Source: Streptomyces marianii | Lineage (GTDB): Bacteria > Actinomycetota > Actinomycetes > Streptomycetales > Streptomycetaceae | Length of the DNA: 64,000 nt | Assembly: GCF_005795905.1 (NCBI RefSeq) | Contig: NZ_VAWE01000001.1 | Span: 1,488,001 to 1,552,000 of the forward strand | Reading direction: 5' to 3' | In this document: in pieces, positions 37,509 to 58,518 of the stretch | Position numbering within the stretch: the first letter of the stretch is position 1 | How the letters are laid out: every line of letters starts with the position of its first letter | The notes under the pieces: generated by a model | Database searches by the model: none | What the model was told of the DNA's origin: nothing | Seen by the model: only the letters and a program-made list of their open reading frames with translations | Made by a program: the position numbers and the translations under genes

Positions 37509-38114
37509 GTGCTCCCTTCCCCTTCCGCGCCGGCCCCGGAACGGGTGGTCCGGCCCTTTCGCGTTCTCGTCGTCTGCACGGGCAATCTGCACCGCTCGCC
37601 GCTGGCGGAACGCCTGCTGAGAGCCAGACTCGCCGCCTCGCCCGGAATGTTCGAGGTGAGCAGTGCCGGAACCGCCGGCACCACCGGCACCCCCATGGAC
37701 CCTTTCGCCGCGTCCCTCCTGGCCGAGCTCGGAGGCGATCCGCGCGGCGCCTTCGCCCGCCGGCTGACCACGGCCCACGTGGAGGACTCCGACCTCGTCC
37801 TGGGCGCCGCTGCGGAACATCGCGAGGCGGTCGTGCGGCTCTCCCCGCTGTGGGCACTACAGCGTGCGTTCACCTTGCGCGAGTTCGCCCGGTTGCTGAG
37901 GCCGGAGGACGCCGCGGGCGTCGCGGATCCCGCCGGACGGGCCGCCACGCTGGTCGGCGGAGCCGCGGCACGACGGGGGAACTCGGGCCGGGCGGACGAC
38001 GACGACGTGGCCGATCCGCACGGGGCGCCCCCGGAGACGGCCCGTGAGGTGGCCCGGCGGATCGCCGAGCCCGTGGAACGCATCGCCGCGGCCGTGCTGG
38101 CCGCTCCGCACTGA
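37509..38114 (+). CDS. Low-molecular-weight protein-tyrosine phosphatase (Wzb-like)
   Basis: Protein of 201 residues. The phosphatase loop is VCTGNLHRSPLAE (C-x5-R-S) near residue 23, and the general-acid DP loop is ADPHGAP near 170. Such enzymes dephosphorylate bacterial tyrosine kinases that control polysaccharide chain length; the Wzz/BY-kinase at 55919 is the natural partner. The insert between the two motifs is longer than in E. coli Wzb and contains an acidic DDDD run. The GTG at 37509 follows a GATAAT box by 6 bp without a ribosome-binding site, so it may be leaderless. It marks the left edge of the polysaccharide locus. Confidence 0.85.
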   Translation: MLPSPSAPAPERVVRPFRVLVVCTGNLHRSPLAERLLRARLAASPGMFEVSSAGTAGTTGTPMDPFAASLLAELGGDPRGAFARRLTTAHVEDSDLVLGAAAEHREAVVRLSPLWALQRAFTLREFARLLRPEDAAGVADPAGRAATLVGGAAARRGNSGRADDDDVADPHGAPPETAREVARRIAEPVERIAAAVLAAPH

Positions 38115-38253
38115 GCGGGCCCACCCGTGCCGGCCGCCCGCCGCGGGTGGGCCCTCTCGCACGCCGGAGTCCGTACCCGCCGGGCCGCGGACTGCATCAG
38201 CCCGACCACCCGCGAGCGCGGCCGACTGCCCGCGCCCCGGGAGGACCGGCGGC

Positions 38254-40071
38254 TCAGCCGCCGCAGGGGCGGGGCGGCCGCGCCGTGGCCCGCAGGGGCC
38301 GGACGAGCTGCTGGTGCAGCAGCGTCGGGGGACGGTCCGAAGGACGTTCCACGAGTTCCAGGACGAGGGTGCGCGTGACGCCGCGGGGCAGCTCCATGTC
38401 GACCGTGTAGACCGGGTGGCCGCGCTCGGTCAGCTGGTTCAGCATGGCCGGCCGGCCGTCCACGGTCGCCCTCGCCAGCCGTGCTCCCAAGGTCGCGTAG
38501 TACGAGACCAGCAACCGGTTGTCGCCGGGCCGGGTCCCGTAGGGCGGGCGGTCCACCCGCTGGGTGACGTAGGCGGGCAGGCCCGAGCCCGGTGCCCCAT
38601 TCGTCAGCGACGCGGTCACGGTCACCTCGCGTCCGGCCTCCGTGCAGCGCCCGGCGGTCCAGTCCATGTGCCGGTCCAGGTAGTAGTCGAGTTTGGTGCC
38701 GGCCGCGTTGTTGACGACCAGTCCGGCGAACGGGGCGGGGCCGTCGGGCAGGACGCCCCCGAAGGGGTGCGCCGCGAGCTCGCGCTGCTCGGCCGGATGG
38801 GCACTCCACACCTTGACCCGCCCTTCCCGCAGCTGGCCCCGCAGCGCCGCGAAGAGCGCGGAGCGTCGCGCCGGGTCGCCGGCACTGCCCAGGAGCACCT
38901 CGGATGTGGCGCGGGCGACGTCGAGGAAGTACGCCTTCCGTTCCGCGGTGTCGGGGAAGGCCGCGTAGCTGGTGCGCTCGGTCAGGTCCACCACGTTGGC
39001 GGCGGTGACGGCGGTCCCGTCGGGGAGTCTGGCGGGACCGGCGGCGGCGAGCAGCCCCGCCAGGGCGCCGGGATCGAGCGCGAAGGCGCCGTCCAGCCGC
39101 TGGCCGCTGTGCTCCCGCCACATGGCGGTCCAGATCCGCGCCGCGTGCGGGAAGTGCGGACTGACGTTGGAGTTGGCCCAGACACCGGTGGGCGCGTGGC
39201 GGCCGTACATCGCGGTGTACTCGGCTCCCAGGTCGACGGACGCGCGGACCTTCCCCAGTTCGCTGTCGTTGCCGAAGCGTTCGAATCCCAGGCGGCCGCG
39301 GTCCGCGGTGAGGATTGCGAACGCCCCGGGCAGCCCGCCGGTGCCGCGCGCCTCCGCCGTGTTCTCGAAGACCACCAGATACCGTCGCGGGCTCTTCTCT
39401 CCGAGCATGGACGGCATCACCCGTGCCGCGGCCGCGGCCTCGACCGTGGCGGGGACGAGGCGGTCGAGCTGGTCGGCGAGCAGGGCCCGTGCCCGGTCCG
39501 CGGCCGGCAGCCAGGTGCTCCGGGGCAGGCCGGCCACGTCGGCGCGCACCTCGGAGGCGCTGCGCGATGCCTCGTGGAGGGCGGGGGCGGCACGGCGAAG
39601 TGCGGAGAGATCGAGATGACCGCCGTCCGCCCCGGCACCGGCGACGAGTTCGCCGGCGGTGTCCGCGAGGGGCGAGAGCACGTCGCGGGTCAGCCGGTCG
39701 GCCGCCTCCGCAGCACCGCGTACGGTGCGGACGGGACCGCCGAGGACGGGCAGGTGCGCCGCGGCGTACCAGGCCGGCCCGGTGGTGAGGCGGTGCGCCC
39801 CGGCCGCCCGGTCGGCGGCCTCGCGCACGGCGCCCTCCGGGGTGCTCGTCGCCGGCGCGCCCGCCGCGGCCGTGCCACGCAGCGATTCCAGGCTCCGCTG
39901 GGCGGCCAGCAGTTCGTGGCGGGCGAGCACTCCGGTGACGGCGATCCAGACGGCCCCGGCCAGGAGCAGCCCCGCGGCGGCGCACATCGAGGCCGCGGCG
40001 GGCCGGCGGCGGCACCAGCGCGCCGCCCTGTCCGCGATGCGGGGCGCGAAGCCGTGTTCCGGACGCGGCAT
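38254..40071 (-). CDS. DUF4012 domain-containing protein
   Basis: Protein of 605 residues, starting at ATG 40071 with GGGAG 6 bp upstream. One membrane helix (residues about 30-50, MCAAAGLLLAGAVWIAVTGV) anchors a large outer domain. The DUF4012 core includes RRYLVVFENTAEARGTGGLPGAF, ANSNVSPHFPHAARIW and FALDPGALAGLLAAAGP. The fold is related to LytR-CpsA-Psr (LCP) proteins, and such genes often sit beside polysaccharide initiating transferases; a role in attaching or releasing the polymer at the wall is inference. It lies 42 bp after the sugar transferase in one operon. Confidence 0.88.
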   Translation of the reverse strand: MPRPEHGFAPRIADRAARWCRRRPAAASMCAAAGLLLAGAVWIAVTGVLARHELLAAQRSLESLRGTAAAGAPATSTPEGAVREAADRAAGAHRLTTGPAWYAAAHLPVLGGPVRTVRGAAEAADRLTRDVLSPLADTAGELVAGAGADGGHLDLSALRRAAPALHEASRSASEVRADVAGLPRSTWLPAADRARALLADQLDRLVPATVEAAAAARVMPSMLGEKSPRRYLVVFENTAEARGTGGLPGAFAILTADRGRLGFERFGNDSELGKVRASVDLGAEYTAMYGRHAPTGVWANSNVSPHFPHAARIWTAMWREHSGQRLDGAFALDPGALAGLLAAAGPARLPDGTAVTAANVVDLTERTSYAAFPDTAERKAYFLDVARATSEVLLGSAGDPARRSALFAALRGQLREGRVKVWSAHPAEQRELAAHPFGGVLPDGPAPFAGLVVNNAAGTKLDYYLDRHMDWTAGRCTEAGREVTVTASLTNGAPGSGLPAYVTQRVDRPPYGTRPGDNRLLVSYYATLGARLARATVDGRPAMLNQLTERGHPVYTVDMELPRGVTRTLVLELVERPSDRPPTLLHQQLVRPLRATARPPRPCGG

Positions 40072-40113
40072 GCGCGTCTCCCTCCGTCGGGCAGCGGTGC
40101 GTCGCACGCCGCG

Positions 40114-40815
40114 TCAGTAGGCGCCGTCGCCGCGCGCGACGGCGGGCAGCGTGCGCACGAGGATCTTCAGGTCCATGCGGATCGACCAGGTGCGCACGTA
40201 CTCCAGGTCGAGGCGGAGCGCCTCCTCCCAGCCGAGGTCGGACCGTCCGCCGATCTGCCACAGGCCGGTGAGGCCCGGCCGGACCAGCAGCCGGCGCCGG
40301 GCCTCCTCGGTGAACGCGGAGTCCCGGATCGGCAGCGGCCGTGGACCGACCAGCGACATCTGCCCCGTCAGCACGTTGACCAGCTGCGGCAGTTCGTCCA
40401 GGGACCAGCGGCGCAACCAGCGGCCGGTCGTGGTGACCCGGGGGTCCTCGCGGATCTTGAACAGATGTCCGTCGGACTCGTTCCGGGCGTCGAGCCCGGC
40501 CCTCATCCGTTCCGCCCCGACGTGCATGGTGCGGAACTTCAGCACCTCGAACTCCCTGCCGTGGCGGCCCGTGCGCTTCTGCCGGAACAGGACCGGACCC
40601 GGGGAGTCCGCCTTCACCGCGACGGCCACCGCGAGGAGCAGCGGCGCGAGCAGGAGGAGCAGGGCGGCGGCCCCGACGACGTCGATGGCCCGTTTGACGG
40701 CCGGACGTCCGAGCCCCGGCCGAGCGGGACCGTGACCGGCCGTCACTGCGACGGGTGAGGCCACCCCTCCGTCCTCTTCAACTGAACGAGGGAAAGTTGC
40801 CCATCGCGGAGGCAT
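40114..40815 (-). CDS. Initiating sugar-phosphate transferase (WcaJ/WbaP catalytic domain)
   Basis: Protein of 233 residues, the short form of the bacterial polyprenyl-phosphate hexose-1-phosphate transferase family: one membrane helix (AAALLLLLAPLLLAVAVAV) and the catalytic domain with SPGPVLFRQKRTGRHGREFEVLKFRTM, DELPQLVNVL, GQMSLVGPRPLP and RPGLTGLWQIGGRSD. It loads the first sugar onto undecaprenyl phosphate. The large N-terminal five-helix part of WcaJ is absent. The start could be ATG 40815 or GTG 40764. Divergent from the epimerase gene; DUF4012 follows. Confidence 0.92.
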   Translation of the reverse strand: MPPRWATFPRSVEEDGGVASPVAVTAGHGPARPGLGRPAVKRAIDVVGAAALLLLLAPLLLAVAVAVKADSPGPVLFRQKRTGRHGREFEVLKFRTMHVGAERMRAGLDARNESDGHLFKIREDPRVTTTGRWLRRWSLDELPQLVNVLTGQMSLVGPRPLPIRDSAFTEEARRRLLVRPGLTGLWQIGGRSDLGWEEALRLDLEYVRTWSIRMDLKILVRTLPAVARGDGAY

Positions 40816-40946
40816 ATTCAGTCACCTAACGTCTCGAATGGTCGATAACCGACAAATAGATGCAAACACGATGTCGGGGCAGGCCTCGGCAATGACACAT
40901 CACCTTGCCGCCGTCGACCCGCGACGTGGCCGTCGAGAGGACCTTC

Positions 40947-41945
40947 ATGCGTGCTGTAGTGACGGGTGGGGCCGGGTTCATCGGCTCCCATCTGTGCGAG
41001 CGCCTGCTCGCCGCAGACCACTCCGTGCTGTGCGTGGACAATCTCGTGACGTCCAGCGAGGACACCGTCGCCCATCTGATGGGAGACCCGCGCTTCCGGT
41101 TCGACTGCCGGGACGTCACCGCGGGGCTGAGCGTGAGCGGACCGGTGGACGCCGTGTTCCACCTGGCGTCGCCCGCCTCCCCCGCCGACTACCTGAGGCT
41201 GCCGCTGGAGACGCTGCGCGTGGGGTCGGCCGGCACCTGGCACGCACTGGACCTGGCCGCCGACAAGGGCGCCCGTTTCCTGCTGACCTCCACCTCCGAG
41301 TCGTACGGAGACCCGCAGGTGCACCCGCAGCCGGAGAGCTACTGGGGCCACGTCAACCCGGTGGGCCCGCGCGCGGTGTACGACGAGGCGAAACGCTTCG
41401 GCGAGGCCCTGACGATGGCGTACCGCAGGGACCGCGGCGTCGACGCCAAGATCGTGCGCATCTTCAACACCTTCGGGCCCGGGATGCGCCCCGACGACGG
41501 CCGGGCGATCCCCACCTTCATCCGCCAGGCCCTGCGGGGGGAGCCGATCACGGTCACCGGGGACGGCAGCCAGACCCGGTCGCTGTGCTACGTGGACGAC
41601 ATCGTCGACGGGCTGATGCGGATGATCGGGAGCAGCCACGGCGGCCCGGTCAACCTCGGCAACCCCCACGAGATCACGATGCTCGAACTGGCCCAGTGGA
41701 TCAGCAAGCTCACCGAGTCCCCCTCCGAGATCGTGCTGGTGCCCCGGCCGCAGGACGATCCAGAGAAGCGCCGTCCGAGCATCACGCTGGCCCGCGAACT
41801 GCTGGACTGGAATCCGACGACACCGGTGGAGCACGGGCTCCGGGAGACCGTCAAGGACTTCCGCCGCCGGATCGACCTCGACGACTTCGGCGCCACGCCC
41901 CGCCGGCATCCCGTCACCGTGCTGAACGGCACGGACCGCCGATGA
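40947..41945 (+). CDS. NAD-dependent sugar-nucleotide epimerase/decarboxylase (UDP-xylose synthase-like)
   Basis: Protein of 332 residues of the extended SDR family. NAD loop GGAGFIGSHL; the catalytic segment STSESYGDPQVHPQ, then the Tyr-x3-Lys pair YDEAKR. The SESYGDPxxHPQ and YWGHVNPVGPR blocks are signatures of UDP-glucuronate decarboxylase (UDP-xylose synthase). It would supply UDP-xylose, or a related pentose, to the glycosyltransferases downstream. ATG 40947 has GAGAGG 6 bp upstream. It opens a run of overlapping genes; its stop overlaps the next start (ATGA). Confidence 0.88.
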   Translation: MRAVVTGGAGFIGSHLCERLLAADHSVLCVDNLVTSSEDTVAHLMGDPRFRFDCRDVTAGLSVSGPVDAVFHLASPASPADYLRLPLETLRVGSAGTWHALDLAADKGARFLLTSTSESYGDPQVHPQPESYWGHVNPVGPRAVYDEAKRFGEALTMAYRRDRGVDAKIVRIFNTFGPGMRPDDGRAIPTFIRQALRGEPITVTGDGSQTRSLCYVDDIVDGLMRMIGSSHGGPVNLGNPHEITMLELAQWISKLTESPSEIVLVPRPQDDPEKRRPSITLARELLDWNPTTPVEHGLRETVKDFRRRIDLDDFGATPRRHPVTVLNGTDRR

Positions 41946-42868
41946 CGCCGGTCGGCGACCGGACGGCGACCGGCACAGCGGCCGTTCCCGTGGTCTCGTG
42001 CCTCGGCGTCCCCGTCACGGCGCACACCCGTGAGGGCGCGGCCCGCCGGGTGGTGCACCGCGCCCTGCACCTCCGGGACACCCGCGAGGCGCACCGGACG
42101 GGAGACGCCGAGGAAGCCGTCGCGCCCGAGGGGAGCGACGTGCACCTGTGCAACGCCTACACCCTCGCCCTCGGCGACAGGGACCCTGACCTGCTCAGGA
42201 CCCTCCGTCAGGCGTTCCTGAACCTCGCCGACGGACAGCCGGTGGTCTGGGCGAACCAGCTGCTCCACCGGGGCACGGCGCTGCCGCGCAGACGCGTGTA
42301 CGGACCGGACCTCATGCTGGACGTCCTATCCATGAGCCAGGGCACCGGGCTGCGGCACTATCTGCTGGGTTCCACACCGGAGGTGCTGTCCGCGTTGCAG
42401 CGCGAGGTGCGGCGGCGCTTCCCCCGTGCCCTGATCGCCGGCGCCTGTTCCCCGCCGTTCCGGTCGCTGACCGCCCAGGAGCTGCGAGAGCAGGAGGAGG
42501 ACATCCGCGCCCGTGGGGCCGACATCGTCTGGGTGGGTCTCGGCACTCCCCTGCAGGACCACCGGGCGGCCGAACTCAGTGCCGCGCTGCCCGTGGTGAC
42601 GGTGGCGGTCGGCGCCGCGTTCGACTTCATCGCGGGCAACAAGCGGCAGGCACCGGCCTGGATGCAGAACGGAGGGCTGGAGTGGATGTTCCGGCTGGCC
42701 TGCGAGCCGCGCCGGATGTGGCGGCGCTATCTGTTCGGCAACGCCCGCTTCGTCGGGGGCGTCGTCCGGCAGGCAGCCCTCCGGACGTCTCCGGGGGCAT
42801 CCGCCCCGACCGGGCGGCCGTCGGACGCCGGGGCGGCGCTCGTCGGCAGGCGGGAGAGGACGCGTTGA
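41942..42868 (+). CDS. WecG/TagA/CpsF family glycosyltransferase (GT26)
   Basis: Protein of 308 residues of the WecG/TagA family, which adds ManNAc-type or glucuronic-type sugars to a polyprenyl-linked intermediate. Blocks seen: LNLADGQPVVWANQLL, YGPDLMLDVL, HYLLGSTPEVL, ADIVWVGLGTPLQD and VGAAFDFIAGNKRQAPAWMQNGGLEW. Start ATG overlaps the upstream stop, and its stop overlaps the next start. It is probably the second transferase of the repeat unit. Confidence 0.9.
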   Translation: MTPVGDRTATGTAAVPVVSCLGVPVTAHTREGAARRVVHRALHLRDTREAHRTGDAEEAVAPEGSDVHLCNAYTLALGDRDPDLLRTLRQAFLNLADGQPVVWANQLLHRGTALPRRRVYGPDLMLDVLSMSQGTGLRHYLLGSTPEVLSALQREVRRRFPRALIAGACSPPFRSLTAQELREQEEDIRARGADIVWVGLGTPLQDHRAAELSAALPVVTVAVGAAFDFIAGNKRQAPAWMQNGGLEWMFRLACEPRRMWRRYLFGNARFVGGVVRQAALRTSPGASAPTGRPSDAGAALVGRRERTR

Positions 42869-44193
42869 CGGCTCCGACCGGTGAGGTCCCGGACGTGGAC
42901 CGCGGGCAGGGCGTCCGCCCGCCCGCCCACGCGCTGCGCATCGTCCTGGTCTCGTACGCGTGCGACCCGAGCCGCGGCACCGAGCCGGGCATGGGCTGGG
43001 CGTGGGCCGAGGCACTGGCACGCCGCGGGCACACGGTCGAGCTGCTGACCCGCCCCCACGGCGGCAACACGGAGCACATCGCCCGGCGCATCAGAGCCCT
43101 CGGCACGGTGGGGCGGCGGATCCGGACCCATGTCGTGCCCGCCCCGCCACGCCCCTGGTGGGTCCGTCTGCTGCCGGGCTTCCTGCGCGGCCAGGCGCTG
43201 GAGTTCGTCCACTACGACGGATGGCAGCGGCACGCCCTCGAACACGCGCGCGCTCATGGGCTCGACGGGGCCGATCTGGTGCACCACGTCTCGTACGGCT
43301 CGCTGGTGGGCGGCAGCGCGCTGCGCCGGCTCGGACCGCCGCTGGTGTTCGGCCCCGTGGGCGGTGGGCAGACCGCTCCGCGCAGTCACCGCCGCTGGCT
43401 GGGACCGGCGTACTTCCAGGAGGCGGTGAGGGAGTTGCTGTGGGTGCGGGGCATGAGCCTGCGCCAGGCGTGCCGTGCGACGCTCCGCGAGGCCGCTCTG
43501 GTCCTGACCACCAATCGCGACACCGCGCTGCGGGCCCGCCGCCTGGGCCGCGCCGACCCGCGTCTGGTCCTGAGCGACGGGGTGCCGGACGAGTTGCTGC
43601 GCGAGCCTCCGAAGGAGGGGGCGCTGCGCCCGGAACGCCCGCCGACCGTGCTCTGGGTCGGACGGCTCACCGCCATCAAGGCCCCGGAACTGGCCCTGAG
43701 GGCGTTCGCGCTCCTCCTCGCCCGCGTGCCCGGCGCCCGTCTCGCGGTGCTCGGGGACGGTCCGCTCCGTGCGGATCTGGAACGGCTCGCGGCACGGCTC
43801 GGTGTCGCCGGCTCCGTGTGCTTCCGGGGACGGCTGACCTGGCAGGAGACCCTCGGCGCGTACGACGACGCTGACGTGCTGCTCTTCACCAGCCTCCGCG
43901 ACTCCTTCGGGGTGCAGAACCTCGAGGCATGGGCCCGGGGACTGCCGGTGGTGCATCTCGACCACCAGGGGGTCGGGGACTTCTCCGCGCCGGGCTGCGC
44001 GGCTCCCGTGCCGCTGGGCGATCCCGTGGACCTGCCGCGCCGCCTCGCCCACGCGCTCGCCGGAGTGCTCGCCGACGAGGAGGCGCTCCACCGCACCGCG
44101 GAGGCCGGACCGCGGTGGGCGCGGCAGCACACCTGGTCCTCGAAGGCCGAACTCGCCGAGCGGCTGTACGAATCCGTCCTGAACCGTCGCTGA
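42865..44193 (+). CDS. Glycosyltransferase family 4 protein
   Basis: GT-B glycosyltransferase of 442 residues. The N-terminal domain starts RIVLVSYACDPSRGTEPGMGW, and the sugar-nucleotide domain carries VLWVGRLTAIKAPELAL, LGDGPLRADLE and DSFGVQNLEAWARGLPVV (an EX7E-like site). The TTG at 42865 overlaps the upstream stop (TTGA), with GGAGAGG 5 bp before it; no better start exists in frame within the spacer. Donor sugar unknown. Confidence 0.88.
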   Translation: MTAPTGEVPDVDRGQGVRPPAHALRIVLVSYACDPSRGTEPGMGWAWAEALARRGHTVELLTRPHGGNTEHIARRIRALGTVGRRIRTHVVPAPPRPWWVRLLPGFLRGQALEFVHYDGWQRHALEHARAHGLDGADLVHHVSYGSLVGGSALRRLGPPLVFGPVGGGQTAPRSHRRWLGPAYFQEAVRELLWVRGMSLRQACRATLREAALVLTTNRDTALRARRLGRADPRLVLSDGVPDELLREPPKEGALRPERPPTVLWVGRLTAIKAPELALRAFALLLARVPGARLAVLGDGPLRADLERLAARLGVAGSVCFRGRLTWQETLGAYDDADVLLFTSLRDSFGVQNLEAWARGLPVVHLDHQGVGDFSAPGCAAPVPLGDPVDLPRRLAHALAGVLADEEALHRTAEAGPRWARQHTWSSKAELAERLYESVLNRR

Positions 44194-44272: not shown

Positions 44273-45553
44273 ATGCCGGCACAACAGGCACCCCGTCTCC
44301 GGACGGGCAGTCCCCCGAGGAACCCGGCGGCCTACCGCGTGGCGCTGGTGCACAGCTTCTACTCCTCCCGCCGGCCGAGCGGCGAGAACGCCGCCGTGCT
44401 CGACCAGGCGGAGGCGCTGCGAGCCGCCGGGCACGACGTCACGCTGGTCGCCGCCCACACCGACGCGCTGGAGAGCGAGCGCGGCTACACCCTGCGTGCG
44501 GCGGTCAGGGTCGCCACGGGCCGCGGCCGTTCGCCGCTGACGGAACTGCGCCGGCTCGGTCCCGATGTGGTGCACGTGCACAACCTCTTCCCCAACTTCG
44601 CCACCGACTGGCTGGACCGCTGGCCCGGCGCCGTGGTCGCCACGCTGCACAACTACCGTCCCGTGTGCGCCGCCGCCACGCTCTTCCGCGACGGGAAGAC
44701 GTGCACGGCCTGCCCCGACGGCGACCGTTGGACCGGACTGCGGCACGGGTGCTACCGGGGGCGCCGCGGCGCGACGCTCCCCCTCGCCTGGGCCGGCCGG
44801 CGCGGCGCGGCGGCCCATCCCCTGCTGCGGCGCGCCCAGCGGCTGGTGATGCTCTCCGAGCGCAGCCGGGACCTGTACCTCAGGTTCGGCGCACCGCCGG
44901 AGAAGCTCGCCCTGGTACCCAACTTCGTCGGCCTCGGCGGTCCGGCCGCTCCGGAGGACCGCACCACGTCGGCGTCGGGGACGGACCGGGCGGCGGCGTC
45001 GGGGGCGGCGGCGCGGTGGGTGTACGCGGGCCGGCTGAGCGAGGAGAAGGGCATCCTGCCGCTGCTCCGGAGCTGGCCGGAGAACGAACCCCTCGATGTG
45101 ATCGGCTCGGGCCCCCTGGAGTCCGCCTGCCGGGAGGCCGCGCCCGGCGGCGTCCGGCTGCTCGGCGCCCTGCCGCGCCGGGAGATCACCGCCCGGCTGC
45201 CGCGGTACACGGGTCTCGTCTTCCCCAGCGTCTGCCCCGAGTCCGCCACCGCCCTGGTCTGCCAGGAGGCGCTGGCGGCAGGAGTGCCCGTGCTCGCCCT
45301 CGCCGGATCGGCGGCGGCGGACAGTGTGCGCGGGGACGGTACGGGCGCGGTCTACGACGGCCCCGGCGAACTGCCGCACGCCCTCGCGACGGCACGCGAG
45401 CGTTTCCCCCGGCTGCGTGAGCACTGCCGCCGGGTGCACGCCGAGCGGTACAGCGCCCGGTCCTGGACGGCCGCCATGGAGGCCGTCTACGCACAGGCCC
45501 TCGCTCACCCGCCGGGCCCTCGCCCGGCGGGCGTCGCGGAGCGGGCGTGCTGA
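44273..45553 (+). CDS. Glycosyltransferase family 4 protein with Cys-rich insert
   Basis: GT-B glycosyltransferase of 426 residues. The acceptor domain has VHSFYSSRRPSGENAAVLDQ and DVVHVHNLFPN; a three-cysteine insert, GKTCTACPDG...HGCYRG, lies near residue 145, found in one GT4 branch and perhaps a metal site. The donor domain contains AGRLSEEKGILPLL and SATALVCQEALAAGVPVLAL. The stop overlaps the next gene by 7 bp. ATG 44273 is the likely start; the upstream part of the frame is unconserved. Confidence 0.87.
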   Translation: MPAQQAPRLRTGSPPRNPAAYRVALVHSFYSSRRPSGENAAVLDQAEALRAAGHDVTLVAAHTDALESERGYTLRAAVRVATGRGRSPLTELRRLGPDVVHVHNLFPNFATDWLDRWPGAVVATLHNYRPVCAAATLFRDGKTCTACPDGDRWTGLRHGCYRGRRGATLPLAWAGRRGAAAHPLLRRAQRLVMLSERSRDLYLRFGAPPEKLALVPNFVGLGGPAAPEDRTTSASGTDRAAASGAAARWVYAGRLSEEKGILPLLRSWPENEPLDVIGSGPLESACREAAPGGVRLLGALPRREITARLPRYTGLVFPSVCPESATALVCQEALAAGVPVLALAGSAAADSVRGDGTGAVYDGPGELPHALATARERFPRLREHCRRVHAERYSARSWTAAMEAVYAQALAHPPGPRPAGVAERAC

Positions 45554-47626: not shown

Positions 47627-47719
47627 GCTCCGGCCGGGTGCCGCGGGGAATCCGCCGCGCACCACGCCACTGGTGCCGAGGAGTGAAGCGGCGGGCAACA
47701 ACACCGACACTTCGGCGTT

Positions 47720-47739
47720 GGCCGCGGATCTCCGCGGCC
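47720..47739. repeat. Perfect 20-bp palindrome between two FkbM genes
   Basis: 9-bp arms (GGCCGCGGA/TCCGCGGCC) and a TC centre. It follows the first FkbM gene by about 94 bp and precedes the second start by 20 bp; it could be a terminator or an operator. Confidence 0.6.
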
Positions 47740-47759
47740 GCTGCCGTACGTTGAGCCGC

Positions 47760-49752: not shown

Positions 49753-51374
49753 GCACCGGCGGCGATCCTGCGGGAGGGGCACGTTCCGGGAAGGAGACCG
49801 CCTCCCCCGGTGAGCACCCGCACTCCCACACGGTCGTCACCGGCACTCTCTGGAACTACGCGGCGGCCGTCGTGGCGGCCTTCCTCCAGCTCGGCTACAC
49901 GGCCTACACCGGACGGGCCGTCAGCGCCGCCGCCTTCGGGGCCTTCGCCTCCGCCCTGTCCATCACCCAGCTGCTGGGCTACTTCGCCAACGCCGGGCTC
50001 GCCACGACCGTGCTGCGTTCGCGCGAGCTGACGCGCGGCCTGCTCATGGCGACGGTCCGCCTGGGCCTGCTGAGCGGCCTCCTGTGCTTCGCCGTGGTGG
50101 AAGCGACGGCCCCGCTCTGGGCGGAGCTGTGGAACGCCCCCGAGACGACGGGGCTGTTGCGCGTGCTGGGCCTCCAGTTCCTGGTCCTCCCCGTGGGTGC
50201 GGTGAGCGCGGCCGGCCTGCGGAGGCTGCAGGCCCAACGGGCCGCGGTCCTGGTCGAGACCGGGGCGCTGGCGGCGGGGCTGCTCGCGGGAAGCCTGCTC
50301 CTGGCGGCCGGCTGGAACCCGCTGGGCCTCGCCGTCACCTCGGTGACCACCCAGCTGGGCATCGCGGTCCTCGCCGGCGCCATGGTCACCCGGCGGCTGC
50401 CGCCGGCGGGCGGCAGGTCCGCCGAACGGCCGGTCAGGTATCGCGAACTCGTCGGCTCATCGGGATTCCTCGCCGGACACCAGCTCGCCCAGTACACGAC
50501 GAACACCGTGCCCCTGTGGGCGGCCGGCACGATCCTCGGTCCGGTGGCGGCTGGCTACTACTCGCGGGCGACACTGTTCACCGGACTGCTCCTCACCACG
50601 CTCGCGGCCGGCCTGACCCGGGTCACGACCCCCGCCCTCACCAGAGTGCGTGCCGAGGTCGTGGGGCGGCCCCCGGGGGCGCGCGCCCCCCGGGGCGGGG
50701 AGGAGCCCGCCGTCCGCCGTGCGGCGACGGACGTCCTGCTCGCGGCCTCCGCCCTGTCGTTCCTCCCGTTCGCGTTCCTCGCCGGCACCGGGCCCGGCGC
50801 GCTGCAACTGCTCCTGGGACCGGGCTGGACCGAGGCGGCCCGGCTGGTGCCCCCGCTCTGCGCCTTCTCCGCCGTCGCCGTCGTGTACGCGGTCGGCCTC
50901 TCCGTGGACACGGTGTGCGGCTCTCTCCGCCGGATGGCGGCCGCCCAGACCGCGGCGGCCGCCACGACACTCGCCGGGGCGCTGGTGGCCGCCTCCCGAC
51001 ACAGCCTCACCACGCTGGCCCTGGCCGCCTTCGCGGGTCAGCTGAGCGGTCTCGCGGTGCAGATGTGGAAGTGGCGGGGCGGCCGTGTCGTCGAGGCACG
51101 GCGCCTGTGGGGCGGCCACGCAGTGCACGCGGCGCTGGGACTGGCGGCGTACGCGGCGGGAGTGGCCCTGTCCCGGACGGCCGCCGACCGCCCCTGCCCG
51201 GCCCTCCTGCTGGTACTGCCGGCCGGCGCGCTCTTCGTGGCGTTCTGCCGCCCCCTGCGCACCCGGCTGCCGCTCCACCGGGTGGCGGCCGGCCGTGGCC
51301 TGCTCCCCCTGCGGCTGCCCTTCCGGGTACGCGGCCCTCGACGCGAGGGGGTCACCCGGCCGCAGGCACAGTGA
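49749..51374 (+). CDS. Polysaccharide flippase (Wzx/MOP family)
   Basis: Membrane protein of 541 residues with about 12-14 helices, of the polysaccharide-transport (MOP/Wzx) superfamily. The first helix TLWNYAAAVVAAFLQLGYTAY and the downstream AAFGAFASALSITQLLGYF strand are typical. It would turn lipid-linked repeat units to the outer face for polymerisation. GTG 49749 overlaps the preceding stop (GTGA). It ends one base before the stop of the convergent FkbM gene. A charged loop of about 20 residues (near 310) separates helix groups. Confidence 0.9.
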   Translation: MSTGGDPAGGARSGKETASPGEHPHSHTVVTGTLWNYAAAVVAAFLQLGYTAYTGRAVSAAAFGAFASALSITQLLGYFANAGLATTVLRSRELTRGLLMATVRLGLLSGLLCFAVVEATAPLWAELWNAPETTGLLRVLGLQFLVLPVGAVSAAGLRRLQAQRAAVLVETGALAAGLLAGSLLLAAGWNPLGLAVTSVTTQLGIAVLAGAMVTRRLPPAGGRSAERPVRYRELVGSSGFLAGHQLAQYTTNTVPLWAAGTILGPVAAGYYSRATLFTGLLLTTLAAGLTRVTTPALTRVRAEVVGRPPGARAPRGGEEPAVRRAATDVLLAASALSFLPFAFLAGTGPGALQLLLGPGWTEAARLVPPLCAFSAVAVVYAVGLSVDTVCGSLRRMAAAQTAAAATTLAGALVAASRHSLTTLALAAFAGQLSGLAVQMWKWRGGRVVEARRLWGGHAVHAALGLAAYAAGVALSRTAADRPCPALLLVLPAGALFVAFCRPLRTRLPLHRVAAGRGLLPLRLPFRVRGPRREGVTRPQAQ

Positions 51375-52133: not shown

Positions 52134-52182
52134 TTGCCCATTGTGGTCGGATCATGTCGGATTTGTCACCGATGGCGGCGTT

Positions 52183-53646
52183 CTACACGCCGTGCCCTTT
52201 CGGATGCCCGCCGGTCTTCGACAGGATGCCGTCCTCCCGCTCCCTGACGACGGGTCGGGCCGGAGGCACCGGTCGAGGCACGGGTGCCGCGAGGTCGGGA
52301 ACGCCGGGCGACGGCGTCCGCGGGGGCCCGCCGGCCGTTCGGACCCGCGCCTGCCACAGGCAGAACCCGAGCAGCACCGCCTGCTCGGGAAAGGCCGAGT
52401 AGGACACGAACAGCACCAACTGGCCGACCATCACGACGCGGAGGGCCACGGTCGCGGCGCCGGCGCGCGCGAGCCGTCGCCAGGTCTGGAAGTAGACGAC
52501 GAGCAGCGCCAGCAGACCCACAAGTCCGAGGCGCAGCATGATGTGCAGGTAGTAGTCGTGCGGGGACACCGTGACGAGCCCGCCCCCGATGAACCGCTCG
52601 TAGCCGGACCCGAAGGGCGCTCCGACCAGCCACTGGACGAGGGTTCGCGGCGCGTCCAGCAGGTCCTGCCAGCCGAGCACCCGCCAGGCGAAGGTGCTTC
52701 GGGTGCCTTGTGTCTCCTCGAACGAGTCCGCGAGGGAGCCGCCGATCGCACCGAAGGCGCCGACGGCGTAGAGCAGGGCCGTGAGGGAGAGCACGAGCGC
52801 TCCCGCACCGGCCGACACGAAGCGCTGTCCGCCGCGCGCGGGCCGCAGCACCCACCAGGCCAGCCCCATCATCGCGGTGGCCGCCCAGACCGTCCGGTGC
52901 TGGAGCAGGACCACGACGAGGAGGAACAGGAAGGCGGTCAGATGTCTCCCGTTCACTCGCCGAGCACCCGCCGGACCGGTGTGGTGCGGGCCACCGGGGG
53001 CCGGCGTGTCTGCGGGTGCGCGGAAGAACAGCAGCATCGCGGCCTGGGCCAGGACCAGCGCCGCGGCGGCGGGCACCGGCCGGGAGTCCACCGTCACACC
53101 GTCGACGGCGAGATGCGCGTTCGCCGCGTGCAGTCCGCGGTCCGCCCAGCCCGCCGCACTGAGCAGCGCGTACGCAGCCGCGGTGGCCAGCCAGGCCCGG
53201 GGGACGACCCGGCTCAGCGAGGCGCTCAGCGGTGCGGTGGCCAGATACAGGGTGATGGCGAGGAAGTGCCAGAAATAGACCCGGGAGTCGTTGCCCGCGG
53301 CCTGCAGTCCGAAGGCGGCCGCCCCCCGGAGGGTGGACCAGGTGGTGAGGGCGAGCATGGCGAGCAGGGCCGCCGATCCGGCGTGGGAGGCCAGGTTGCG
53401 GCGGGGCACACGCGCCATGGCGACGGCGATCGCGCACACGTCCAGGACGTCGGTCGGGTAGACGCGTACGCCGATGTCGAGGGCTGCCGTCTGCCCACCG
53501 ACGACGACGATCCAGACCTGGGTGCCCAGCAGCAGCCCGATCGCGATCCCGCAGTGCCGGGCGAAGACCCACAGCAGCAGCCCCACGAGCGGAAGCGCCA
53601 TGAGCAGCACCAGCAGGGTCTGCGGGTCAACGGGAAGGAGTCGCAC
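52183..53646 (-). CDS. Polysaccharide polymerase (Wzy/O-antigen ligase-like)
   Basis: Protein of 487 residues with about eleven membrane helices and a long outer loop, typical of Wzy polymerases. The Wzy_C-like region shows RSTFAWRVLGWQDLLDAP, GAPFGSGYERF and SPHDYYLHIMLRLGLVG (an H-x-Y type motif). It would join lipid-linked repeat units. The last about 55 residues are a Pro/Arg tail. Start GTG 53646. Wzy sequences vary strongly, so this call rests on topology, the motifs and the cluster. Confidence 0.82.
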   Translation of the reverse strand: MRLLPVDPQTLLVLLMALPLVGLLLWVFARHCGIAIGLLLGTQVWIVVVGGQTAALDIGVRVYPTDVLDVCAIAVAMARVPRRNLASHAGSAALLAMLALTTWSTLRGAAAFGLQAAGNDSRVYFWHFLAITLYLATAPLSASLSRVVPRAWLATAAAYALLSAAGWADRGLHAANAHLAVDGVTVDSRPVPAAAALVLAQAAMLLFFRAPADTPAPGGPHHTGPAGARRVNGRHLTAFLFLLVVVLLQHRTVWAATAMMGLAWWVLRPARGGQRFVSAGAGALVLSLTALLYAVGAFGAIGGSLADSFEETQGTRSTFAWRVLGWQDLLDAPRTLVQWLVGAPFGSGYERFIGGGLVTVSPHDYYLHIMLRLGLVGLLALLVVYFQTWRRLARAGAATVALRVVMVGQLVLFVSYSAFPEQAVLLGFCLWQARVRTAGGPPRTPSPGVPDLAAPVPRPVPPARPVVREREDGILSKTGGHPKGHGV

Positions 53647-53745
53647 CGTGATCCGTTCTGGGACGTGGGAAACGCGCTGGGGGTGGACCGGGTCCCTGCG
53701 GCCGGCGGTACGGTCGGCCTTCCGCCGGGCCGCGTTGCCGGTCGT

Positions 53746-54675
53746 TCAGGAGTCCGCGCGGAGGGACGCGTGCCGGCGCCGCGGCAGGGCTCCCGGCCGG
53801 CGCACGGTGGACCGCAGGACGGTCTTCACGTACGGGGAGCAGAAGACCAGCGGGGCCCAGGGGCCGAGGTGCCGGCGGCAGTACCGCCACCAGGGCGCCG
53901 GCGGCTGCTCCCGTACGGAGGCGAGCCGCCGCAGCGCGGTGCGCGCGTCGAGGCCGGGTTCGGCCGAGGTTCCCCCGACGGCGCCGGAGTTGTCGTCGCA
54001 GGTGCCCACGTGACCCGGTGCCAGCAGCAGCGGGATGCCGGCCCGGCGGGCACGGAGCCCGTAGTCGTGGTCGCCCATGCGGTGTGGGAAGGCGGGGTCG
54101 AGGTCGCCCAGCACGCGCCGGGCCGGGGCCGTGACCAGCACCGCGTTGCCGTTGCAGGTGTCGCACGGCGTGGCCTGCCGGGCGTCCGGTTCGACGCGCT
54201 CCAGGGCCGGGGGGCGCAGGGGTGGCCGGACGAGGCGGTAGCCGCTGTAGGTGGTGCGGGTTCCGTCGCCGGAGCGCGTGGCGCCGACGGCCACGGCCGG
54301 GCGGTCGAGGGGTGCGGCGGTGCGCAGCAGTGCGGCGAGGGCTCCCCTGTCGAGGACCACGTCGTCGTTGAGCCAGAGCACATGGGCCGCGGGGTCGGCA
54401 CGGGTGGCGGCGATCCTGGTGCCGGTGCCCCAGAAGACGTCCGGGCCGACCGTCACCACATCGGTGCCGGGGAAGGCGGCCCGCACCTCGTCGGCGGTGC
54501 CGTCGGCGCTGCCGGCGTCGACGAGGTGGACGGTGCAGCGGGTGCCGGCCGGAAGGCCGGTCTGGGCGTGCACCGAGGAGATGGCCGCGAGCGTCCTGTC
54601 CCGGCGGTTGTGACAGGTCATCAGGACGGCGACGCCGCGCGGGGCGCCCCCGGGCGGAATGCGATCGGCGTGCAC
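53746..54675 (-). CDS. Glycosyltransferase family 2 protein
   Basis: GT-A glycosyltransferase of 309 residues. N-terminal VAVLMTCHNRRDRTLAAISSV, metal-binding VLWLNDDVVLDRG (DxD position), and the catalytic base region MGDHDYGLRARRAG. The style is that of rhamnosyl- or fucosyl-transferases acting on outer sugars. The start GTG is 4 bases after the gmd stop, so it forms a translational pair. A possible acceptor is the fucosylated unit made with GDP-fucose from gmd and fcl. Confidence 0.88.
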   Translation of the reverse strand: MHADRIPPGGAPRGVAVLMTCHNRRDRTLAAISSVHAQTGLPAGTRCTVHLVDAGSADGTADEVRAAFPGTDVVTVGPDVFWGTGTRIAATRADPAAHVLWLNDDVVLDRGALAALLRTAAPLDRPAVAVGATRSGDGTRTTYSGYRLVRPPLRPPALERVEPDARQATPCDTCNGNAVLVTAPARRVLGDLDPAFPHRMGDHDYGLRARRAGIPLLLAPGHVGTCDDNSGAVGGTSAEPGLDARTALRRLASVREQPPAPWWRYCRRHLGPWAPLVFCSPYVKTVLRSTVRRPGALPRRRHASLRADS

Positions 54676-54679
54676 CGGG

Positions 54680-55720: not shown

Positions 55721-55813
55721 ACGCGCTCCTTGGCTGATGAGGTTTCACGAAGCGACGGAAGGCTCCCTTGCAGGTAGGCGCCCCGGCACCCCACCAGTGT
55801 AGGGAACAATTAC

Positions 55814-55828
55814 TGCATTTCTTATGCA
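55814..55828. promoter_or_regulatory. AT-rich inverted repeat in the gmd-wzz gap
   Basis: TGCATTTCTTATGCA, a palindrome with 5-bp arms (TGCAT/ATGCA), in a rare AT-rich patch (55800-55850) between divergent gmd and the chain-length gene. Likely an operator or promoter region for both directions; no exact promoter could be fixed. Confidence 0.45.
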
Positions 55829-55918
55829 ATGTGGCGTTATGTCGTATTTCGCCCCTTTCGCCGTAAGGTGGCACCACCCCACCCAGCCCTTCACCGGATC
55901 CGATCGGGGACGGACACC

Positions 55919-57529
55919 TTGGACCTTCGCGACTACCTACGAGTCCTCTCTCGCCGCTGGCGCGCCATCACCGCGCTGACCCTGCTCGGCACGGCGGCCG
56001 GCGTGCTCCTCACGTACACGGCCATCCCCGAATACCGGGCCACCTCCAAGCTCTTCGTCTCGCTGCATGGCGGCACCGACGCGGACACCGCGCAGCTCGC
56101 CCAGGGCAATCTCTTCACCCAGGCCCGTGTGCGTTCGTACGCCGAAGTGGCGACGAGCCCCCTGGTGACCCGGCACGTCGTGAAGCAGCTGAAGCTGAAG
56201 ATGTCACCGGCCGCGCTGAGCAGCAAGATCAGCGCGACCGCCCAGCCCGACACGGTGCTGCTCCAGCTCACCGTCACCGACACCGGTGCGGCACGGGCGG
56301 CGCGCATCAGCAACGCAGTCGCCGAACGGTTCACCGAGGTGATCCGCGGTCTCGAGCGCCCGATCGACGCCGATTCGTCGCCGGTGCGGCTGAGCATCAC
56401 CGAGCCGGCCTCCGTGCCCGGCACGCCCTTCTCGCCGCGGCCGGCCACGAACATCGCACTCGGGCTCCTGGCCGGGCTGATCCTCGGGGCCGGCTTCGCC
56501 CTGGCGAGGGAGACCCTGGACTCGTCGGTCCGCACGTCCAAGGCGCTGACCGACGCTCTGGCCGGCTTCGGCGGACCGCCCGTGCTCGGCAGCATCGTGC
56601 ACGACCCCCAGGCGACCAGCCGGCCGGTGGCGCTCCGCGACGACATGCACGGGCTGCGCGCCGAGGGCTTCCGGCGGCTGCGCACCTGTCTGCAGTTCGT
56701 GGACGTGGACCGGCCGCCGAAGGTGATCGCGGTGACCAGCCCGCTGTCCGGCGAGGGCAAGACCAGTGTCGCGGTGAACCTCGCCGCGACACTGGCCGAG
56801 ACCGGAGCCTCGGTGTGCCTGGTCGACACCGACCTGCGCCGTCCCTCCACCGCCCGGACCCTGGGCCTGATCAGGGACGCCGGGCTCACCACCGCGCTGA
56901 TCGGCCGGGCCGAGGTGCAGCAACTGCTGCAGTCCGCGGGATCCTTCTCCGTACTGACCAGCGGCGCGGTGCCGCCGAACCCCACCGAGCTGCTCGGCAG
57001 CGCGCAGCTGAAGTCCGTACTCCGCAGTCTCGCCGAGAAGTTCGACCACGTCGTGGTGGACACCGCTCCGGTGCTCCCCGTCGCGGACGCCTCCGTGATC
57101 GCCTCCGAGGTGGACGGCTACCTCCTGGTCGTCCGGGCCTCCCGAACCAGCCGCGACCAGGTCGCGGAGGCTCTGCGCGCCCTGCGGCACGTGGGTGCCT
57201 CCGTGGTCGGCACGGTCCTCAACATGGCCTCGCCGAAGGAGGACCGCGGTGCCCACGGGTACGCCTACGAATACCGGCCGCAGTGCCACACGACCGGCCG
57301 GTTCGCCCGCCTGGCCCGGCTCGCCCGCATCTCCCGTCCGGGCCGGACCGGGCGCCCGTCCCGCCTGGCCAGGATCGCGCGGGCCGTCAGGCGCAGGCGG
57401 TCCCCCGGCACCGCCCCGGCCCTGCCGACTCCCGGCGGGGGGCCCGACGCCCGGCTCGCCGCCCCGGTGAGGGCGCTCGCCGAAGAGGCGCCGCGCCCGG
57501 TGGCAGTCGAACGGAGCGTGCAGTCATGA
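55919..57529 (+). CDS. Polysaccharide co-polymerase/tyrosine kinase fusion (Wzz + BY-kinase)
   Basis: Protein of 536 residues. A Wzz domain with two membrane helices (RRWRAITALTLLGTAAGVLLTY near residue 15; NIALGLLAGLILGAGFAL near 180) is fused to a cytosolic BY-kinase: Walker A SPLSGEGKTSVAVNLA, A' CLVDTDLRRPS and Walker B HVVVDTAP. After the kinase comes a tyrosine cluster, GYAYEYRPQ, the expected autophosphorylation site, then an Arg-rich tail with repeated RLAR units. It sets chain length and couples to the phosphatase at 37509. TTG 55919 is the start; it overlaps fcl by 4 bases. Confidence 0.9.
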   Translation: MDLRDYLRVLSRRWRAITALTLLGTAAGVLLTYTAIPEYRATSKLFVSLHGGTDADTAQLAQGNLFTQARVRSYAEVATSPLVTRHVVKQLKLKMSPAALSSKISATAQPDTVLLQLTVTDTGAARAARISNAVAERFTEVIRGLERPIDADSSPVRLSITEPASVPGTPFSPRPATNIALGLLAGLILGAGFALARETLDSSVRTSKALTDALAGFGGPPVLGSIVHDPQATSRPVALRDDMHGLRAEGFRRLRTCLQFVDVDRPPKVIAVTSPLSGEGKTSVAVNLAATLAETGASVCLVDTDLRRPSTARTLGLIRDAGLTTALIGRAEVQQLLQSAGSFSVLTSGAVPPNPTELLGSAQLKSVLRSLAEKFDHVVVDTAPVLPVADASVIASEVDGYLLVVRASRTSRDQVAEALRALRHVGASVVGTVLNMASPKEDRGAHGYAYEYRPQCHTTGRFARLARLARISRPGRTGRPSRLARIARAVRRRRSPGTAPALPTPGGGPDARLAAPVRALAEEAPRPVAVERSVQS

Positions 57530-58518
57530 CCGCCGTGCTGTCGGAACCGTACGGGGCCGTCCGCCGTCCCCTGGACCGCTCGGCCCGGGTGCTCGTGGCC
57601 GGACGCCGTGGACTCGTCGGTTCGGCGATGTGGCGGCATCTGTCGCGGGAGGGCTTCACCGGCCTGATGGGGCCCGGTTCCGCGGAACTGGACCTGCGCG
57701 AGCGCCGTGAGGTCTTCGACTGGTTCGCCTCCGCCCGACCGGACGTGGTGGTACTCGCCGCCGCCCGCGTGGGCGGGATCAGGGCCAACTCCACCCGGCC
57801 CGCCGACTTCATCTCCGACAACCTCCGGATCCAGGTCAATGTGCTGGACGCCGCGCTGGAGCACGGGGTCGAGCGGCTGCTGTTCCTGGGGTCCAGCTGC
57901 ATCTACCCCAAGCTCGCCGAACAGCCCGTCCGGGAGGACGCGCTCCTCACGGGCCCGCTGGAACCGACCAACGACGCCTACGCCATCGCCAAGATCGCCG
58001 GGATCCAGCAGGTCCGGTCGGTACGGCGCCAGCACGGCCTGCCGTGGATCTGCGCCATGCCGACCAATCTGTACGGCCCCGGGGACAACTTCCATCCCGA
58101 GCACTCTCATGTGCTGCCGTCGCTGATCCGCCGCTTCGACGAGGCCCGCAGGGAGGGAGCACCACGGGTCGTGAACTGGGGCTCCGGAACGCCGCGCCGG
58201 GAATTCCTGCACGTGGACGATCTGGCCCGGGCCTGCCTCCACCTGCTCGAGCACTACGACGCGGACGGCCCCGTCAACATCGGCACCGGAACGGACCTGA
58301 CCATCCGGGAGGCGGCGGAGCAGGTGGCGGAGGTCGTCGGCTACCGCGGAACCCTCGAATGGGACCCGGGGCAGCCCGACGGGACCCCGCGCAAGCTGCT
58401 GGACATCTCCCGGATCACCGCGCTCGGCTGGGAACCGAGGATCGGCCTGCGTGACGGCCTCGCCGACACCTACGCCTGGTATGCGGACCACCTCGGCTCC
58501 GGCGTGCTGCGGCTCTGA
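57526..58518 (+). CDS. fcl: GDP-L-fucose synthase
   Basis: Enzyme of 330 residues (GFS/WcaG): the NADP loop VLVAGRRGLVGSAMWRHL (GxxGxxG), GSSCIYPK with the catalytic cysteine, the YAIAK pair and NLYGPGDNFHPEHSHVLPSLIRRF are diagnostic. It epimerises and reduces the product of gmd to GDP-L-fucose. ATG 57526 overlaps the stop of the Wzz/kinase gene. Its end is followed by a hairpin terminator that closes the polysaccharide locus. Confidence 0.93.
   Translation: MTAVLSEPYGAVRRPLDRSARVLVAGRRGLVGSAMWRHLSREGFTGLMGPGSAELDLRERREVFDWFASARPDVVVLAAARVGGIRANSTRPADFISDNLRIQVNVLDAALEHGVERLLFLGSSCIYPKLAEQPVREDALLTGPLEPTNDAYAIAKIAGIQQVRSVRRQHGLPWICAMPTNLYGPGDNFHPEHSHVLPSLIRRFDEARREGAPRVVNWGSGTPRREFLHVDDLARACLHLLEHYDADGPVNIGTGTDLTIREAAEQVAEVVGYRGTLEWDPGQPDGTPRKLLDISRITALGWEPRIGLRDGLADTYAWYADHLGSGVLRL

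What the first reader, a model, noticed from the sequence alone, without database searches (positions are those of the whole stretch)
37509..58518. A complete Wzx/Wzy-type exopolysaccharide locus predicted to make a fucose- and xylose-type, O-methylated polymer
Phosphatase, initiating transferase, six glycosyltransferases, flippase, polymerase, chain-length kinase, UDP-xylose-synthase-like, GDP-mannose dehydratase and GDP-fucose synthase genes sit together. Three FkbM methyltransferases in one cluster suggest multiple O-methyl sugars. Motifs are seen directly; the polymer structure is inferred.
Basis: partly seen in the sequence, partly recalled or inferred. Interest (0 to 1): 0.72.

Follow-up and report, generated by a model that had tools for sequence, protein, structure and literature searches.

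The report
Sugar-coat gene cluster with surface-protein partner
A soil bacterium carries a full set of genes for making and exporting a sugar coat, and in its relatives an uncharacterised enzyme of such sets nearly always comes with one kind of wall-anchored protein, which suggests a testable way in which the coat is held on the cell.

Summary
In detail: the 17 genes named lie at 37509-58518 and family scans bear out each call. Missed: one gene inside (DUF4012, 38254-40107) and two beyond the edge, a sortase-type surface protein (59202-60068) and a glutaminyl cyclase (60268-61131). As a Wzx/Wzy polysaccharide locus it is a new member of a known kind; fucose and xylose supply is well supported, O-methylation and polymer structure are inference. 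Less ordinary is the module around DUF4012. (1) The core (238-446) of its AlphaFold model has the fold of LytR-CpsA-Psr (LCP) glycopolymer transferases, without their Pfam signature or Arg-Asp motif. (2) In 295 Streptomyces genomes a surface-protein family with mature N-terminus (Q)(P)YPP gives strong hits in 32 of 34 with DUF4012 and 1 of 261 without. (3) The cyclase is in 26 of 34 versus 12 of 261. With it in the locus the predicted first residue of the surface protein is Gln in 24 of 25 loci, otherwise in 5 of 24 (5 of 10 within the genus; not significant after phylogenetic correction). Best reading: an LCP-like ligase hands the polymer to a pyroglutamate-capped, wall-anchored protein, as LcpA does to GspA in Actinomyces oris. 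Chemically unproven.

The parts
37509..38114 (+). low-molecular-weight protein tyrosine phosphatase (Wzb-like)
   Evidence: PF01451 6.7e-19, CTGNLHRS loop; near DUF4012 in 20 of 30 other Streptomyces stretches
38254..40107 (-). DUF4012 membrane protein with LCP-like core (238-446), helical N-terminal part and C-terminal beta-sandwich
40114..40815 (-). priming polyprenyl-phosphate sugar-1-phosphate transferase, 6 bp from the GTG start of DUF4012 on the same strand
   Evidence: PF02397 1.3e-66; TIGR03025 281 bits, under its cut-off 295.6
40947..41945 (+). UDP-glucuronate decarboxylase (UDP-xylose synthase)
   Evidence: UDP-glucuronic acid decarboxylase 1, 4gll, 3.4e-101
41942..42868 (+). WecG/TagA/CpsF glycosyltransferase
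   Evidence: PF03808 5.7e-50, TIGR00696 over cut-off
42865..44193 (+). GT4-type glycosyltransferase (start uncertain, 42682-42900)
   Evidence: PF00534, PF13692; start from codon bias
44273..45553 (+). GT4-type glycosyltransferase
   Evidence: PF13439, PF13692
45547..46755 (+). GT4-type glycosyltransferase
   Evidence: PF13692
46742..47626 (+). FkbM methyltransferase 1
   Evidence: PF05050, TIGR01444 over cut-off
47673..48602 (+). FkbM methyltransferase 2
   Evidence: PF05050, TIGR01444 over cut-off
48673..49752 (+). glycosyltransferase-like protein
   Evidence: PF13524 1.2e-8
49743..51374 (+). Wzx-type flippase (start uncertain)
   Evidence: PF13440, PF01943
51375..52133 (-). FkbM methyltransferase 3
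   Evidence: PF05050, TIGR01444 over cut-off
52183..53646 (-). Wzy-type polymerase
   Evidence: PF04932 34.6 bits, cut-off 31.7; relatives in 5 of 61 genomes, own included
53746..54675 (-). GT2 glycosyltransferase
   Evidence: PF00535, PF13641
54680..55720 (-). GDP-mannose 4,6-dehydratase
   Evidence: TIGR01472 510 bits over cut-off 415; PDB 1n7g 9e-133
55829..57529 (+). Wzz chain-length domain fused to bacterial tyrosine kinase
   Evidence: PF02706, TIGR01007 156 bits over cut-off 108
57526..58518 (+). GDP-L-fucose synthase
   Evidence: NF047922 448 bits, under its cut-off 500; PDB 7ll6 1.1e-111
59202..60068 (+). surface protein: signal peptide, predicted mature N-terminus QYPP, beta-sandwich domain, Asp/His-rich linker, LADTG sorting signal
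   Evidence: P29, A30, A32, Q33, Y34, P35, P36 invariant in 17 rows; family in 49 of 55 DUF4012 loci; 32 of 34 vs 1 of 261 genomes at E 1e-7
60268..61131 (+). probably secreted beta-propeller glutaminyl cyclase (QC)
   Evidence: PF05096 274 bits; glutamine cyclotransferase 3mbr 2e-46 with ESTG, NELE and TGK kept

Best explanation
The region is a strain-variable Wzx/Wzy polysaccharide locus built round a conserved actinobacterial attachment module. Shown: the gene set, the locus order, the recurrent neighbours, the LCP-like fold of the DUF4012 model, and the genome-wide pairing of DUF4012 with a YPP surface protein. Inferred: the priming transferase loads a sugar phosphate on undecaprenyl phosphate; six transferases build a repeat that can contain fucose and xylose and be methylated; Wzx flips it; Wzy polymerises it under control of the Wzz-kinase and phosphatase. 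DUF4012, a membrane protein whose outer core folds like LCP phosphotransferases, takes the finished lipid-linked polymer and joins it to an acceptor; the likeliest acceptor is the YPP surface protein, which signal peptidase cuts to expose an N-terminal glutamine, the cyclase caps as pyroglutamate, and a sortase anchors to the wall. This would hold the coat on the cell, in the manner of LcpA and GspA of Actinomyces oris.
Against: No PF03816 hit for DUF4012, no PDB sequence match. Foldseek's own E-values for LCP chains are only 1.4e-3 and worse, its single match under 1e-3 being an M1 peptidase to another part. A first profile comparison with shallow alignments found nothing (score 23, probability 0.6%) and the deeper one gives only 42%. 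The LCP Ser-x-Pro-Arg-Asp motif is not at the equivalent strand end (positions 277-281 variable). The genome has 10 LCP places that could do the attaching. In the window itself the surface gene is 18.9 kb from DUF4012. On the DUF4012 tree only 5 independent pairs exist; on average about 2 agree and none disagree, sign test not significant. Within the genus, where the cyclase was sought genome-wide for all but three rows, Q without it in the locus is 5 of 10 (Fisher 0.004, kinship ignored). Three loci have Q with no PF05096 match in the genome (G206, G268, G217) and G314 has QC but A-Q. Nothing shows the surface protein is glycosylated.
Confidence: 0.45

Rival explanations
1. DUF4012 is an LCP-like ligase that joins the polymer to peptidoglycan, as other LCP proteins do with their glycopolymers; the surface protein is a separate scaffold or adhesin that holds or shapes the polymer without covalent linkage.
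For: Apart from LcpA, the LCP proteins studied use peptidoglycan (PMC6381275 discussion). Same fold evidence. The beta-sandwich domain plus Asp/His-rich linker of the surface protein would suit a scaffold.
Against: Does not by itself explain the near one-to-one genome-wide pairing with the surface protein or their adjacency.
Confidence: 0.3
2. DUF4012 is not a transferase but a helper of the polymerase or flippase (a co-polymerase or envelope auxiliary), with the LCP fold kept for lipid binding only.
For: The Arg-Asp motif of LCP is absent; the invariant set is E252, G257, G258, G261, D345, Y381, K472. It sits beside the priming transferase and Wzz (B. longum, PMC5412050 passages, called there an auxiliary protein).
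Against: Charged residues E252 (79 of 79) and R254 (76 of 79) at the strand turn of the core suggest chemistry.
Confidence: 0.17
3. The locus is an ordinary secreted exopolysaccharide cluster; the surface protein and cyclase are neighbours without functional link to the polymer.
For: In the window they lie outside the sugar genes, next to a 117-bp repeat array; the sugar genes alone make a sensible pathway.
Against: Genome-wide pairing 32 of 34 vs 1 of 261 and adjacency in 31 loci; cyclase in the locus in 22 of 26, while 15 cyclase stretches away from DUF4012 (11 of the 12 genomes without DUF4012, and 4 with it) hold no such surface protein.
Confidence: 0.08

Closest known systems
Bifidobacterium longum 105-A CPS/EPS locus (PMC5412050, passages seen)
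   Same: priming transferase next to DUF4012, then wzz, transferases, flippase, polymerase
   Different: rhamnose supply, not fucose and xylose; no surface-protein or cyclase link in the passages seen; DUF4012 only called an auxiliary protein
Actinomyces oris LcpA-GspA (PMC6381275, abstract and discussion; PMC7831098, passages)
   Different: LcpA is a true LCP with catalytic Arg149 and Arg266; DUF4012 lacks the Pfam signature and the Arg-Asp motif; no cyclase in the text seen
Bacteroidetes Q-rule (PMC5837995, one passage; PMC10653852, abstract)
   Same: signal peptidase exposes Gln which a cyclase turns into pyroglutamate
   Different: there most exported proteins obey it; here Q at +1 is rare overall (3 of 210 crude predictions) and tied to one protein family in one kind of locus
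PEP-CTERM/EpsH exosortase system (PMC1569441, search listing only)
   Same: exopolysaccharide loci that co-occur with a class of sorted surface proteins, found by phylogenetic profiling
   Different: sorted by an exosortase (recalled); no exosortase family hit among the locus proteins scanned
Ebosin ste cluster of Streptomyces sp. 139 (PMC4347597, abstract start in listing)
   Same: Streptomyces exopolysaccharide cluster with a fucosyltransferase
   Different: not compared by sequence here

Membership tests
Wzx/Wzy-dependent polysaccharide pathway | priming polyprenyl-phosphate transferase | tested here: met
   PF02397 224 bits
Wzx/Wzy-dependent polysaccharide pathway | Wzx flippase and Wzy polymerase in the locus | tested here: met
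   PF13440 78 bits; PF04932 34.6 bits, cut-off 31.7
Wzx/Wzy-dependent polysaccharide pathway | chain-length protein with tyrosine kinase, and phosphatase | tested here: met
   PF02706 and TIGR01007; PF01451
Wzx/Wzy-dependent polysaccharide pathway | polymer made and lost on wzy deletion | not testable with these tools
   needs bench work
LCP (LytR-CpsA-Psr) family, for DUF4012 | PF03816 sequence signature | tested here: not met
   only PF13196 at E 0.001
LCP (LytR-CpsA-Psr) family, for DUF4012 | LCP core fold | tested here: met
LCP (LytR-CpsA-Psr) family, for DUF4012 | profile-level sequence kinship | tested here: inconclusive
   shallow: none; deep: score 43.2 vs controls up to 24.6, probability 42%
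LCP (LytR-CpsA-Psr) family, for DUF4012 | catalytic Arg-Asp at the end of the third core strand | tested here: not met
   positions 277-281 variable in 79 rows; placed from strand order, not from a residue-level superposition
Glutaminyl cyclase, beta-propeller type (PF05096) | family profile over cut-off and kept active-site motifs | tested here: met
   274 bits, cut-off 22.3; ESTG, NELE, TGK kept against 3mbr and 3nol; that these hold E69, N155 and K225 is recalled
Sortase (LAxTG) substrate | signal peptide, LAxTG, hydrophobic stretch, basic tail | tested here: met
   LADTG and KRRRNGSQRG tail, kept in A4; by motif, no signal-peptide program was available
Sortase (LAxTG) substrate | a sortase in the genome | tested here: met
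   13 PF04203 places; class E not assigned
Bacteroidetes-type Q-rule | most exported proteins start with Gln after cleavage | tested here: not met
   Q in 3 of 210 crude A-x-A predictions from the fetched stretches
PEP-CTERM/exosortase system | exosortase and PEP-CTERM protein in the locus | tested here: not met
   no such family among the 20 proteins scanned

The most novel reading that the evidence does not exclude
DUF4012, present in 102 of 197 genomes sampled from the class, is a second, divergent branch of LCP-fold glycopolymer ligases that attaches Wzy-made polysaccharide to a dedicated sortase-anchored protein rather than to peptidoglycan; the attachment site is the conserved Tyr of the YPP motif at the extreme N-terminus, next to a pyroglutamate cap made by the locus's own cyclase. 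Exopolysaccharides of many actinobacteria would then be protein-linked.
Probability: 0.18. Interest if true: 0.87.

Novelty: new variant of a known kind. Interest (0 to 1): 0.6.

Why it matters
How Wzx/Wzy polysaccharides stay on actinobacterial cells is largely open (recalled), and DUF4012 is widespread but little studied: 3 papers in the library mention it, and the passages seen of two of them give it no fold or activity (the third was seen in the listing only). The fold match plus the near exclusive pairing with one surface-protein family turns an unknown domain into a testable attachment enzyme with a named candidate acceptor, and offers a locus-specific pyroglutamate cap in a Gram-positive. 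Going by titles, abstract starts and the passages read, the searches showed no paper that gives DUF4012 an LCP-like fold or ties a glutaminyl cyclase or such a surface protein to an exopolysaccharide locus; DUF4012 itself is already placed in a polysaccharide locus in B. longum.

Tried and rejected
O-methyl assignment: the third FkbM against plasmids gave 10 records, annotated FkbM in 8, hypothetical in 1 and unannotated in 1, none with a known sugar; no target could be named. The idea that the cyclase serves exported proteins in general was rejected: Q at +1 is rare (crude rule, and one of the three is the G163 surface protein cut at the wrong place). The idea that cyclases always sit with such surface proteins was rejected: 15 stretches around cyclases away from DUF4012 had none. 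LCP membership by Pfam and by shallow profiles failed. For the surface protein no fold beyond a general Ig-like beta-sandwich was found: model pLDDT 58; best Foldseek rows are the Nir2 C-terminal domain, a fungal effector and many immunoglobulin chains. VIA-align can list only what Foldseek ranked, and DUF4012 before residue 237 was barely tested.

Counts to read with care. The cut-off E 1e-7 was chosen after seeing the table; at the tool's 0.001 it is 33 of 34 versus 25 of 261 (the extra one, G253, matches on another contig). Of the 25, 11 end by model position 40 (signal peptide and first residues); G293 matches most of the model at 5e-9; the other 13 reach positions 58-91 at E 8e-7 to 9e-4 and may be distant kin or chance. 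19 of the 34 genomes gave rows to the model; of the 15 that did not, 13 are hit at 1e-7. The 49-of-55 count comes from a profile iterated on its own hits; the starting profile already gave 47 segments. Distances to DUF4012 run from stop-to-stop frames to the edge of a tblastn match. The 49-row table leaves out 6 of 55 loci without a profile hit (G253, G134, G637, G056, G040, G054); G134 does have a hit 15 kb away, and G056 and G040 have sortase-like proteins with YPP beside DUF4012. In G181, G297 and G309 the cyclase was placed, outside the stretch I held; G553, G441 and G636 were not in the sample and their cyclase was seen in the stretch. For the 14 rows outside the genus the cyclase was judged absent only from the stretch held, 13-35 kb, and 60 kb for G405. 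The +1 residue was read by an A-x-A/S/G rule and by eye. An earlier 39-row table gave 17 of 18 versus 4 of 21. At the genome level instead of the locus, Q is in 26 of 28 genus rows with any cyclase and 3 of 7 without. In 18 of 30 class-level loci where my script found the DUF4012 frame, 5 showed a sortase-like tail beside it in the short flanks held.
Full report
What the window is. The window is part of a 9.0-Mb genome (G000:C1:1488001-1552000); the named relatives put it in Streptomyces. GC content is 68-77% in 2-kb steps and no tRNA is present.

The observation. Pfam and NCBIfam scans of 20 proteins from 37509 to 61131 give a phosphatase, a priming sugar-1-phosphate transferase, a UDP-xylose-synthase-like enzyme, a WecG/TagA transferase, three GT4-type, one PF13524 and one GT2 transferase, three FkbM methyltransferases, Wzx, Wzy, GDP-mannose dehydratase, a Wzz-tyrosine-kinase fusion and GDP-fucose synthase. 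Solved relatives confirm the nucleotide-sugar enzymes. A UDP-glucose dehydrogenase is not in the locus, but six PF03721 places pass the cut-off elsewhere in the genome.

How common the locus is. Relatives of the polymerase occur in 5 of 61 genomes, its own included, one of them at E 9e-4 only. All 18 genes from 37509 to 58518 are in the same order in G034 at 83-96% identity, the surface protein at 69% and the cyclase at 81%; G034's contig length equals that of S. wuyuanensis NZ_FNHI01000001. Nearly all of it is in G254. G009 keeps most genes at 40-88% (surface protein 29%) but shows no FkbM1, FkbM2, GTa or GTd. G405, of another genus, has Wzy, GT2, GMD, kinase and GDP-fucose synthase relatives at 55-84%. 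Other DUF4012 loci keep the kinase, phosphatase and priming transferase (20, 20 and 17 of 30 stretches) while the sugar genes change. So the sugar cassette varies and the rest is the chassis.

The surface protein. The protein at 59202-60068 has a signal peptide, a predicted mature start QYPP, a beta domain, an Asp/His-rich linker and LADTG with a hydrophobic stretch and basic tail. In 17 aligned sequences (the window and 16 database relatives) P29, A30, A32, Q33, Y34, P35 and P36 are invariant; the 17th relative, P0257, left out of that alignment, also reads AFAQYPP. A profile from the first 190 residues, iterated, finds this family in 49 of 55 DUF4012 loci, including that of an Arthrobacter (G053; same protein as P0121) at 6e-28. 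In 31 of them it lies within 245 bp of DUF4012 on the same strand. No hit appears in 279 kb around cyclases away from DUF4012 plus 148 kb around LCP and sortase genes. A search of 295 Streptomyces genomes gives strong hits (E 1e-7 or better) in 33: 32 of the 34 with DUF4012 and 1 of the 261 without. The cut-off was set after seeing the table; at 0.001 it is 33 of 34 and 25 of 261.

The cyclase. PF05096 occurs in 38 of 295 genomes: 26 of 34 with DUF4012 and 12 of 261 without (Fisher 3e-21, not corrected for kinship). In 22 of the 26 it lies within 36 kb of DUF4012. In 49 loci with a surface protein, the predicted first mature residue is Gln in 24 of 25 with the cyclase in the locus and in 5 of 24 without (Fisher 4e-8). 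Two cautions weigh on this. Fourteen of the 24 lie outside the genus, where I looked for the cyclase only in the stretch held; within the genus it is 24 of 25 against 5 of 10 (Fisher 0.004). And related loci are not independent: on the tree only 5 independent pairs remain on well supported branches, about 2 agree and none disagree on average, and the sign test cannot reach significance. Of the five with Q but no cyclase in the locus, G129 and G152 have one elsewhere in the genome; G206, G268 and G217 have none; G314 has a cyclase but A before Q. A crude control on other A-x-A signal peptides gives Q in 3 of 210.

Mechanism. The sugar part follows the textbook Wzx/Wzy scheme. For the end of the pathway the anatomy resembles A. 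oris, where LcpA, encoded next to gspA, transfers glycan to the sortase-anchored GspA (PMC6381275, abstract and discussion; PMC7831098, passages). I propose that DUF4012 moves the finished polymer from its lipid to the YPP protein and that the cyclase caps that protein's N-terminus. In Porphyromonas gingivalis such capping stabilises exported proteins (PMC10653852, abstract). Fold of the model, pairing and conservation are shown; transfer, acceptor and capping are inferred.

Literature. DUF4012 is named in 3 papers of the library: the B. longum capsule paper (passages), a survey that quotes it (passage) and a transcriptome paper (listing only). Two 2026 papers on Actinoplanes polysaccharide clusters and sortase E were searched by term only: the first names DUF4262 in its wps-1 cluster and no sortase, the second no polysaccharide.

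Verdict. The finding is real and, as stated, ordinary: a new member of a known kind. The part that deserves a second look is the DUF4012, surface-protein and cyclase module, a new variant of polysaccharide attachment that can be tested with a handful of deletions.

Noticed in passing
61487-62190: Tandem array of a 117-bp unit, 6 copies, 99% alike, just downstream of the cyclase. Not explained.
   Followed up: no
35741-37363: Malate synthase gene borders the locus on the left; it does so too in G034, G254 and G553, so this may be a fixed insertion site for that version of the locus.
   Followed up: partly
59718-59924: The Asp/His/Gly-rich linker of the surface protein is coded by 30-33 bp tandem repeats and varies in length among relatives, which suggests slippage-driven length variation.
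   Followed up: no
L065:4962-5602: The cyclase gene of G228 is matched in two pieces, as if broken, though the surface protein there still starts with Gln.
   Followed up: no
L070:5370-11225: G314 carries two DUF4012 genes around a kinase and a phosphatase gene.
   Followed up: no
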